Below, piece by piece: positions 7,381 to 64,000 of a stretch of DNA of 64,000 nucleotides; position 1 is the stretch's first letter; every line of letters begins with the position of its first letter. The notes beneath the pieces were generated by a model. That model was not told the DNA's origin. It saw nothing but the letters and a program-made list of their open reading frames with translations, and ran no database searches. Location: the NCBI RefSeq assembly GCF_000732625.1, contig NZ_JPJI01000004.1, positions 1-64,000 of the forward strand, read 5' to 3'. The position numbers and the translations under genes are program-made. The stretch is from Nonlabens ulvanivorans (GTDB taxonomy: Bacteria > Bacteroidota > Bacteroidia > Flavobacteriales > Flavobacteriaceae).

Positions 7381-7416
7381 TACTGATTTAGAGAATAAAT
7401 TCTCGATTAAATATAT

Positions 7417-7450
7417 AAAACCACGTTGAAGTTTATCAACGTGGTTTTTT
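7417..7450 (+). terminator. Terminator of sucC
   Basis: AAACCACGTTGA-agttta-TCAACGTGGTTT followed by T residues, 40 bp after the sucC stop. Confidence 0.9.
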
Positions 7451-7484
7451 TATGTGTTGAAAGTTTTAAATCAAATCAGTTTAT

Positions 7485-7492
7485 TAAATTTG
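7485..7492 (+). promoter_or_regulatory. -7 element of the T9SS cargo gene
   Basis: TAAATTTG lies 18 bp upstream of the ATG at 7511. It sits downstream of the earlier in-frame ATG at 7454, which argues for the 7511 start. Confidence 0.6.
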
Positions 7493-7510
7493 AGTATAAA
7501 CCAACACATT

Positions 7511-8287
7511 ATGAAACACTTATACTCTTTTTTAATTTTTGCCATTTTTACGATAACAGCCCAAGCTCAATATATCGAGTTTGATTTTGATAATGCAACC
7601 ATTAATGGGAATACGGTGACACAAGATGTTACTGTTAATGGGATAGGATACCGTTTAACAGCTGTACATGGTTCTAATAGTACAGCAGCGTTATTTGATG
7701 ATGGAACAGGTGATTTGTCTTTAAGAGGTACCGGTGGCTCTAGACCAGAACAAAACTGGACCATTTCATTAATAAAAGCTGGATCTGCAGAGAATTTTGA
7801 TTTTGTAAGTGTGGACTATTTTAATAATAGTGGTTCAACACATACCTTTATTGTAGGTGATAGTAATAATAATGCCATATCTGCACAGACTAACATTCCG
7901 CCTAGCGATGCAGGAACGATACTAGTAGCCACACCAGCAAATGCGACTAACTTACCATCGTGTTTGATCTTTGGTTTGACATTTTTTGCGACTACAGACA
8001 CTTATTTTGATAACTTAAGTATCAGACCGGTTTCTTTATTATCTAATGAAGATGAAACACTAGAAAGTGTGCAGTATTTTCAAAACAGTCAACAAAACTT
8101 AGTTTTATCACATCGCGAGTTAGAAGGAGCAACGATAGAAATCATGAATCTTAACGGACAGCTGTTAACCAGTACAACGGCAGATGCGATAGATTATGTA
8201 GTGGATGTTGCAAATCTAGCGAGTGGATTGTATGTCGCGCGTGTGACCATGGATGATCAGGTAGAAACGATTAAATTTATAAGATAG
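7511..8287 (+). CDS. Secreted protein with T9SS type A C-terminal sorting domain
   Basis: 258 residues from the ATG at 7511, chosen because it begins a clear signal peptide (MKHLYSFLIFAIFTITAQA, cleavage near residue 19) and because the promoter lies between it and the upstream ATG at 7454. The body is a beta-rich module with no recognised catalytic motif. The last ~75 residues form a por-secretion sorting domain: IEIMNLNGQLL, then LASGLYVARV and a terminal VETIKFIR. Such proteins are exported to the periplasm by Sec and then across the outer membrane by the type IX system, and are released or anchored at the cell surface. The substrate is unknown. Confidence 0.85.
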   Translation: MKHLYSFLIFAIFTITAQAQYIEFDFDNATINGNTVTQDVTVNGIGYRLTAVHGSNSTAALFDDGTGDLSLRGTGGSRPEQNWTISLIKAGSAENFDFVSVDYFNNSGSTHTFIVGDSNNNAISAQTNIPPSDAGTILVATPANATNLPSCLIFGLTFFATTDTYFDNLSIRPVSLLSNEDETLESVQYFQNSQQNLVLSHRELEGATIEIMNLNGQLLTSTTADAIDYVVDVANLASGLYVARVTMDDQVETIKFIR

Positions 8288-62406: not shown

Positions 62407-62985
62407 CTACTCTTTAAACAATACAGCCTTTTGCATTACAGAAAGAGGATAGTTTTTTACAATGGCACTTTCTTCATTACCTGTCATAGACGTATCTTGA
62501 ACACGAGCCATGGTAATCATAAATTCCATATAATCATCGTGAAATACTTCTGTACAGTTTAATAGGTTGCCCATTACCTCATAGGTGCTGAACAAAGTTT
62601 GATCTGCATATGCCGTTTCTAATACAATTCCATTATTCTCATCAACTAGGTATAGATTAGGATTATGTGTCTTTTTTAAATTATAAGCTCTTTCAGATCG
62701 CTCTTCACCATAGAAGATTTTATATTGATAGTTCAAACTGTCAGTCGTTTCTAATAAGTGAAACTCCATAGGTATGGATTCCTTACCTCTACTAGTGGTA
62801 ATGTTGAGTTTACCTTTATAAGCACCTAGAAAATCTTGCGGAAATATTTTGTCGGTAGATAGTATGTTCTTATTGGCGGTTAATTGCGATTCTACATTAT
62901 CGTTATAGACAGTGGTGCTAGTCTCTTGCGCTTCTTTACAGCCAACGCTAGAAATTAAAAGTAGTAAAAGGAGTAGTTGTTTCAT
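62407..62985 (-). CDS. Lipoprotein of unknown function
   Basis: 192 residues. Signal sequence and lipobox MKQLLLLLLLISSVGC (Cys16) followed by KEAQET. The mature part (FPQDFLGAYKGKLNITTSRGKESIPMEFHLLETTDSLNYQYKIFYGEERSERAYNLKK) looks like a lipocalin-type or similar beta-barrel fold. Not recognised as a named family. Probably outer-membrane attached. Confidence 0.75.
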   Translation of the reverse strand: MKQLLLLLLLISSVGCKEAQETSTTVYNDNVESQLTANKNILSTDKIFPQDFLGAYKGKLNITTSRGKESIPMEFHLLETTDSLNYQYKIFYGEERSERAYNLKKTHNPNLYLVDENNGIVLETAYADQTLFSTYEVMGNLLNCTEVFHDDYMEFMITMARVQDTSMTGNEESAIVKNYPLSVMQKAVLFKE

Positions 62986-63007
62986 GCCATAAAAATAGGT
63001 ATAAATG

Positions 63008-63300
63008 AGGAAATCCCGAGTTGTCGCAATGACTTCTCAGGATTTCCTACTAACCAACCAAAAAACTTTATGAATGTAAATTACTCTAATAATTACCTTC
63101 ATCTATTATATGACAAATTGCGTGCCAAACTATTATGCATGCATAGTTAATTTATAAACTGACAAGTCTATAAAAGAAGAATTCTCAAGAGCATAATGCA
63201 CCTTGAGAATTCTCACTAACCAACCAAAAACTTTATGAAAGAAACTACTCTTACATTTTCTCTTTCAATTATAACAATTCAATTTGTGTGCCATAAATGG
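63008..63300 (+). repeat. Two tandem hairpin-leader units
   Basis: Unit A (63008-63135): hairpin AGGAAATCC/GGATTTCCT (63008-63016, 63040-63048), then ACTAACCAACC, an A run and CTTTATGAA. Unit B (63178-63300): perfect 12-bp hairpin AGAATTCTCAAG/CTTGAGAATTCT (63178-63189, 63202-63213), then the same block. The hairpin arms differ in sequence between units but both fold. The units share a 3' block ending near GTGCCA. Each has a short frame (26 codons at 63070-63150, 22 codons at 63235-63303) that does not look protein-conserved, so regulatory RNA or relic leader DNA is more likely. No T tract follows the hairpins. No other gene is seen in 62986-63475. Confidence 0.6.
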
Positions 63301-63475: not shown

Positions 63476-64000
63476 TTACAGCCATTTTTTCCATTTAAAG
63501 AAAGTAAGAAGCACTATAAAGATACCACCGCTCATAATCCAGAAATACTGATAACCGTCTTCCCAACTTAATTCTGGTATATGTTCAAAATTCATCCCAT
63601 AAATACCAGCTAGAAATGTCAGAGGTATAAAAATAGAAGACATGATGGTTAACACCTGCATGATTTGGTTCATCTTATGGCTTACACTAGATAAATACAT
63701 GTCTTTAAGTCCAGTATTGATTTCTCTATAGGATTCTATTGTCTCTGTGATTTGTATACAATGATCATAAGCATCATGAAAATAAGTCACAATTTTAGGG
63801 TCTATTAAATGACTTTGTTCTTTTAGCAATTTACTAATCGATTCTCTTAAAGGATATATAGCACGTCTTAAGGCTAGTAACAATCGTTTATTGCGTTGTA
63901 CCTTATTAAGAGACTCTTTATCAGGTTCTTCAAAAATTTCGTCTTCTAGGTCATTTAAATATTCACCTATTTGTTCTACAGCAATAAAATAGTGGTCAAT
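63476..64000 (-). CDS. corA: CorA-family magnesium transporter, C-terminal part
   Basis: Partial: about 174 C-terminal residues, the 5' end lies beyond position 64000 and the frame is open to the window edge. DHYFIAVEQIGEYLNDLEDEIFEEPDKES begins the visible part, a long stalk helix follows, and the C-terminus has two membrane helices with the YGMNF signature (AGIYGMNFEHIPEL) between them and a Lys-rich end (FFKWKKWL). Pentameric Mg2+ channel of the inner membrane. The stop codon is at 63476. Confidence 0.93.
   Translation of the reverse strand: MDHYFIAVEQIGEYLNDLEDEIFEEPDKESLNKVQRNKRLLLALRRAIYPLRESISKLLKEQSHLIDPKIVTYFHDAYDHCIQITETIESYREINTGLKDMYLSSVSHKMNQIMQVLTIMSSIFIPLTFLAGIYGMNFEHIPELSWEDGYQYFWIMSGGIFIVLLTFFKWKKWL

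What the first reader, a model, noticed from the sequence alone, without database searches (positions are those of the whole stretch)
63008..63300. Tandem hairpin plus conserved-leader units before a gene-poor stretch
Two units of about 120-130 bp have different hairpin stems (AGGAAATCC/GGATTTCCT versus AGAATTCTCAAG/CTTGAGAATTCT) followed by the same block ACTAACCAACC-A run-CTTTATGAA and a similar 3' block near GTGCCA. Stem sequences differ while pairing is kept. The ATG in the common block opens frames of 26 and 22 codons with unrelated peptides, so the RNA or DNA is conserved rather than the peptide. No downstream gene on the plus strand lies close by.
Basis: seen in the sequence. Interest (0 to 1): 0.6.

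Follow-up and report, generated by a model that had tools for sequence, protein, structure and literature searches.

The report
Tandem sigma-54 small RNA genes
Two neighbouring stretches of DNA in a marine flavobacterium look like a pair of small-RNA genes, read from the opposite strand to the one first suspected and apparently switched on by the alternative sigma factor RpoN; their most conserved piece recurs across the bacterial family, so it may be an undescribed regulator of outer-envelope protein production.

Summary
The repeat is real but was read on the wrong strand. Predicted RNAs: 63101-62998 and 63267-63167. A covariance model finds exactly these two copies in this genome and 1-5 in all 23 genomes of the genus (Nonlabens, by inference). 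29 of 30 aligned units keep the promoter; rpoN is in 23/23 genomes. No peptide frame is conserved. The 17-nt 3' module plus terminator recurs across Flavobacteriaceae (101 exact hits against 5 for the reversed control in 299 genomes), either behind a sigma-54 promoter as a stand-alone RNA or just after envelope-protein genes, most of which have TGGCAC-type promoters. The genome has no Hfq or RRM-protein hit. SusC leaders are not enriched in complementary sites; exported-protein start regions are modestly, and one DUF6029 gene keeps a pairing site in diverged relatives. Best reading: sigma-54-dependent antisense sRNAs acting on envelope mRNAs. No expression data exist.

The parts
63112..63127 (-). 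Unit A sigma-54 promoter TGGCACGCAATTTGTC (-24/-12)
   Evidence: Sequence; TGGCA[CT]-N5-TTG in 29 of 30 aligned units; rare in intergenic DNA
63134..63145 (.). Palindrome TATGCATGCATA ending 6 nt upstream of the unit A promoter (centre about -38); putative regulator site; absent from unit B
   Evidence: Found in 16 of 29 units, 15 of them at the same 6-nt distance
62998..63101 (-). Predicted sRNA A, about 104 nt, +1 near 63101
   Evidence: Promoter geometry; covariance model R1 full-length hit, E 4.9e-15 (rough calibration, and this sequence is in the model)
63071..63101 (-). 5' hairpin of sRNA A
   Evidence: Fold; the 5' hairpin starts 0-3 nt from predicted +1 in 28 of 29 units
63049..63069 (-). 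Constant module AAAGTTTTTTGGTTGGTTAGT of sRNA A (candidate seed)
   Evidence: GGTTGGTTAG in 30 of 30 blast-found units; 17-mer enriched family-wide
63008..63048 (-). Terminator hairpin of sRNA A, followed by U-rich tract to about 62999
   Evidence: Inverted repeat; 7 of 12 helix pairs with changes on both sides
63278..63293 (-). Unit B sigma-54 promoter TGGCACACAAATTGAA
   Evidence: Sequence; intergenic site
63167..63267 (-). Predicted sRNA B, about 101 nt, +1 near 63267
   Evidence: Promoter geometry; R1 full-length hit, E 1.2e-11
63236..63267 (-). 5' hairpin of sRNA B (GAAAGAG..TTTCTTTC)
   Evidence: Fold
63215..63234 (-). Constant module AAAGTTTTTGGTTGGTTAGT of sRNA B (one T fewer)
63178..63213 (-). 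Terminator hairpin of sRNA B, followed by U-rich tract to about 63170
   Evidence: Inverted repeat, 100% paired
62407..62985 (-). Downstream gene, predicted 192-aa lipoprotein, no Pfam match; follows the units in most but not all relatives
63476..64000 (-). Upstream gene corA (continues past the window)
   Evidence: PF01544, E 3.7e-45

Best explanation
Two tandem small-RNA genes on the minus strand. Sequence and comparison show: a sigma-54 type promoter, a predicted RNA of about 100 nt starting with a hairpin, a constant single-stranded 3' stretch AAAGUUUUUUGGUUGGUUAGU, and an intrinsic-type terminator whose stem varies but stays paired. Inferred from these: RpoN holoenzyme with an NtrC-type activator transcribes them under a specific, possibly envelope-related, signal; the constant stretch is a seed that pairs with ACC-rich start regions of exported and outer-membrane protein mRNAs (a DUF6029 gene is the best candidate) and blocks translation, without Hfq; the same seed-plus-terminator module at the 3' ends of envelope genes elsewhere in the family yields equivalent 3'UTR-derived RNAs. 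Rough step confidence: sRNA genes on the minus strand 0.9; sigma-54 dependence 0.85; action by antisense pairing through the module 0.55; envelope-protein mRNAs as main targets 0.4.
For: TGGCA[CT]-N5-TTG in 29 of 30 units from 23 genomes; 5' hairpin starts 0-3 nt from the +1 that this promoter predicts in 28 of 29; rpoN in 23 of 23 genomes and two clear sigma-54 activators in this one; terminator helix with 7 of 12 pairs changed on both sides; exactly two model hits here and 1-5 in every genome of the genus; start codon and reading frame not conserved. Module: 101 exact hits against 5 for the reversed control in 299 family genomes, hairpin behind 103 of 105 against 10.7% of random positions, stand-alone sigma-54 or 3'UTR contexts. 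Targets: complement 7-mers 3.0-fold enriched at starts in 1,064 genes (6 of 200 shuffles reach this), half of them before exported-type genes (2 of 200 reach this); DUF6029 site kept in five diverged orthologues, -14.1 kcal/mol against -9.3 for shuffled seeds (1 of 1000). In F. psychrophilum the experimentally mapped sigma-54 regulon includes envelope-stress genes and a putative regulatory RNA, Rfp36 (PMC9723704).
Against: No expression data. Units were found by similarity that included the promoter, so its conservation is partly ascertained; at a second genomic locus one copy of each pair (L120, L128, L133) has no sigma-54 site. The U-tracts are interrupted (TCATTTAT, TTCTTTTAT). SusC start regions show no enrichment. 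Duplex energies over all start regions are not beyond shuffled seeds (16 genes below -16 kcal/mol, shuffles mean 9, maximum 25), so the target signal rests on the 7-mer tests and one gene picked for its score. The two module-bearing 3'UTR genes of this genome (L004, L007) lack a sigma-54 site upstream.
Confidence: 0.7

Rival explanations
1. Cis-acting leader: the sigma-54 promoters drive the downstream lipoprotein gene and the hairpins are attenuators in its 5'UTR.
For: In most relatives the lipoprotein gene follows in the same direction; here its ATG is 23 bp beyond the last hairpin. At a second locus the units also precede an exported-protein gene.
Against: The downstream gene changes between loci and is convergent or different in L039 and L049; copies are tandem, each with its own promoter and terminator; the same module ends stand-alone transcripts and genes in other genera.
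Confidence: 0.12
2. The conserved module is a protein-binding or RNA-stabilising 3' tag on RNAs of this regulon, not a pairing seed.
For: Always directly 5' of the terminator (103 of 105), like the U-rich binding stretch of Hfq sRNAs; found on both mRNAs and stand-alone RNAs.
Against: No Hfq or RRM protein found in this genome; complementary sites are enriched at start codons and kept in DUF6029 orthologues.
Confidence: 0.2
3. Plus-strand duplicated leader of outer-membrane receptor genes, partly decayed.
For: The plus strand reads ACTAACCAACC-A run-CTTTATGAA, resembling a leader plus start codon.
Against: No other copy in the genome at up to 3 mismatches; no downstream plus-strand gene; SusC leaders not enriched; conserved in the whole genus with both strands' features explained by the minus-strand reading.
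Confidence: 0.03

Closest known systems
Qrr sRNAs of Vibrio (sigma-54 dependent quorum regulatory RNAs)
   Same: Small RNAs with -24/-12 promoters, in several copies per genome, ending in an intrinsic terminator (Qrr papers listed; details from general knowledge).
   Different: Unrelated sequence; Qrr need Hfq, here no Hfq was found; here the copies lie in tandem and the 3' module is shared with 3'UTRs of other genes.
FopS / GibS sRNAs of Bacteroides thetaiotaomicron
   Same: Paralogous Bacteroidota sRNAs with a single-stranded conserved seed and terminator; one member is 3'UTR derived (PMC11697453).
   Different: FopS use the housekeeping sigma promoter, carry the seed at the 5' end, bind the RRM protein RbpB and repress susC; here sigma-54, seed next to the terminator, no RRM hit, no SusC enrichment. 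No Rfam family reaches its threshold.
Rfp36, putative sigma-54 controlled RNA of Flavobacterium psychrophilum
   Same: A flavobacterial RNA downstream of an experimentally mapped sigma-54 type promoter (PMC9723704).
CpxQ (cpxP 3'UTR) and RybB/MicA (sigma-E) of enterobacteria
   Same: Works-like comparison only: stress-regulon RNAs, some cut from 3'UTRs, that repress envelope-protein mRNAs (general knowledge).
   Different: No sequence relation; Hfq dependent; different sigma factor.

Membership tests
sigma-54 dependent promoters | TGGCAC-N5-TTGC-type -24/-12 element | tested here: met
   29 of 30 units; the base after TTG varies, so the -12 match is often TTG rather than the full TTGC
sigma-54 dependent promoters | rpoN and an enhancer-binding activator in the genome | tested here: met
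   rpoN 23/23; two strong PF00158 proteins
sigma-54 dependent promoters | Transcription lost without RpoN | not testable with these tools
   needs an experiment
trans-encoded base-pairing sRNA | Own promoter and intrinsic terminator, no conserved ORF | tested here: met
trans-encoded base-pairing sRNA | Conserved pairing sites in target mRNAs | tested here: inconclusive
   7-mer enrichment and one conserved candidate; overall duplex energies not enriched
Hfq-dependent sRNA | Hfq in the genome | tested here: not met
   no PF17209 match, control genomes ring
FopS sRNA family | Match to the published family / RRM partner | tested here: not met
   no Rfam hit at threshold, no RRM match
Qrr sRNA family | Sequence match to the family | tested here: not met
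   no Rfam hit
SusC/TonB receptor leader | Block found in leaders of such genes | tested here: not met

The most novel reading that the evidence does not exclude
Flavobacteriaceae carry a shared 3' module (GUUUUUUGGUUGGUUAGU plus terminator) that marks transcripts of the sigma-54 envelope regulon, whether mRNA 3' ends or stand-alone RNAs, and turns them into interchangeable Hfq-independent antisense regulators of envelope-protein synthesis, in part including the module-bearing genes' own 5'UTRs (gene B leaders contain CCAACCAAAA).
Probability: 0.35. Interest if true: 0.78.

Novelty: new variant of a known kind. Interest (0 to 1): 0.62.

Why it matters
Very few sRNAs are understood in Bacteroidota, and most members lack Hfq, so how their sRNAs work is open. 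A short module conserved across many Flavobacteriaceae genera, tied to sigma-54 promoters, gives a defined seed, promoter and candidate targets for direct tests, and would add a post-transcriptional arm to the flavobacterial sigma-54 regulon, parallel to sigma-E/Cpx sRNAs in enterobacteria.

Tried and rejected
Plus-strand leader reading. Peptide on either strand: plus-strand frames unrelated; minus-strand ATG at +1 replaced by AAG, GGG, ACG, GCG, TAG in other units and frame broken by indels. Known Rfam family: none at gathering score; best sub-threshold match BTnc201 25.8 bits against 105 needed. SusC genes as targets: not enriched. Strict TTGC[AT] promoter scan of 1.2 Mb found no intergenic site upstream of a gene, so the looser TTG form was used. 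RNA-binding partner Hfq or RRM protein: none found. Some TGGCACGATGATTGG matches upstream of the module are coding sequence for Trp-His-Asp-Asp-Trp and were not counted as promoters.

Full report
What is there. The window (contig C4 of genome G000) holds two units at 63008-63300 as described. blastn finds the stretch in all 22 other genomes of the genus and nothing comparable outside it.

Strand. Read on the minus strand, 30 units from 23 genomes align as: TGGCA[CT]-N5-TTG (29 of 30), about 10 nt, a 5' hairpin, AAAGTTTTTTGGTTGGTTAGT, a hairpin of variable sequence, a U-rich tract. The element is the sigma-54 -24/-12 promoter. Counting from -24, the predicted +1 falls 0-3 nt before the 5' hairpin in 28 of 29 units, an independent check of the geometry. 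Terminator stems covary: 7 of 12 pairs have changes on both sides. In 1.2 Mb of another contig, intergenic TGGCA[CT]-N5-TTG sites number 5, against 0-1 for spacing or reversed controls. rpoN is in 23 of 23 genomes; this genome has two clear activators. A palindrome TATGCRYGCATA lies 6 nt upstream of TGGCAC in 16 of 29 units, including A but not B, so the two copies may differ in control.

Copies. Covariance model R1 (built without the promoter; its own training sequences match by construction) finds 62998-63101 and 63167-63267 and no others in this genome, and 1-5 copies in every genome of the genus. Units sit at two main places: corA (or uvrA, L105) - units - lipoprotein gene, and, in other species, before a different exported-protein gene. 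At the second place one of each pair lacks a sigma-54 site. The changing neighbours argue for a free-standing RNA over a leader.

Beyond the genus. The exact 19-mer AGTTTTTTGGTTGGTTAGT is found in 65 stretches, nearly all Flavobacteriaceae. The 17-mer has 101 hits in 74 of 299 family genomes against 5 for the reversed pattern. A hairpin follows in 103 of 105 against 10.7% of random positions; 49 hits lie within 40 nt of the stop of an ORF of at least 100 aa, 37 others have a sigma-54 site within 100 nt. The 3'UTR genes are mostly two exported-protein families (here 'gene A', 'gene B'), many with TGGCAC-type sites 50-90 nt before the ATG (23 of 53 by the strict pattern against 1 on the reverse strand; many others have TTGG). 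In Gramella (L121) the gene is Spy/CpxP-like (LTXXQ, below cut-off). Gene B leaders contain CCAACCAAAA, complementary to the module: a possible feedback loop, not tested.

Targets. SusC-type genes are not enriched. Over 1,064 genes, total duplex energies are not beyond shuffled seeds, but complement 7-mers at -30..+3 are 3.0 times the upstream background (6 of 200 shuffles reach it) and half of the hits precede exported-type proteins by a crude rule (2 of 200 reach it). The region and the tests were chosen after looking, so this is suggestive only. A DUF6029 gene (C32:1059519) was picked for its score; in five diverged orthologues, not used for picking, pairing energy averages -14.1 against -9.3 +/- 1.5 for shuffled seeds (1 of 1000).

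Literature. In F. psychrophilum mapped start sites give a sigma-54 regulon with chaperones, proteases, Skp, gliding genes and a putative RNA Rfp36 (PMC9723704). B. thetaiotaomicron FopS sRNAs repress susC (PMC11697453). No paper in the held library joins the module sequence with flavobacteria; subscription papers are not covered.

Verdict. Two tandem, very probably sigma-54 dependent sRNA genes (shown by sequence and comparison, not by expression). Antisense action on envelope mRNAs is the most likely mechanism and remains inference.

Noticed in passing
L089, L094, L125, L130 and genomes G145, G200, G122, G033: Two exported-protein families ('RYYNSQEIRFVENGVLY', about 205 aa; 'SYIFVEGGVEFSVFPDGQFDFVY', about 430 aa with an Arg/Ser-rich C-terminus) lie in tandem about 1.5 kb apart, each with the module 3-20 nt after its stop and a TGGCACGG-type promoter.
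   Followed up: partly
L004 (G000:C26:145812) and L007 (G000:C32:1097442): Two more GGTTGGTTAGT-plus-terminator modules in this genome, after predicted lipoprotein genes; no sigma-54 site upstream of either gene.
   Followed up: partly
L121 (Gramella sp. AN32), 7400-7900: Module directly after a Spy/CpxP-like (LTXXQ/DUF4890, sub-threshold) gene, reminiscent of CpxQ from the cpxP 3'UTR.
   Followed up: partly
L074, L081, L092 and others, leaders of 'gene B': 5'UTR contains conserved CCAACCAAAA complementary to the module in the 3'UTR of the same mRNA; possible autoregulation.
   Followed up: partly
window 63134-63145: Palindrome TATGCATGCATA at a fixed 6-nt distance from the sigma-54 promoter in about half of the units; unusually close for an activator site.
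   Followed up: partly
L098, L111, L117, L123, L131: TGGCACGATGATTGG reads Trp-His-Asp-Asp-Trp in a coding frame and mimics a sigma-54 site; a trap for promoter scans.
   Followed up: yes
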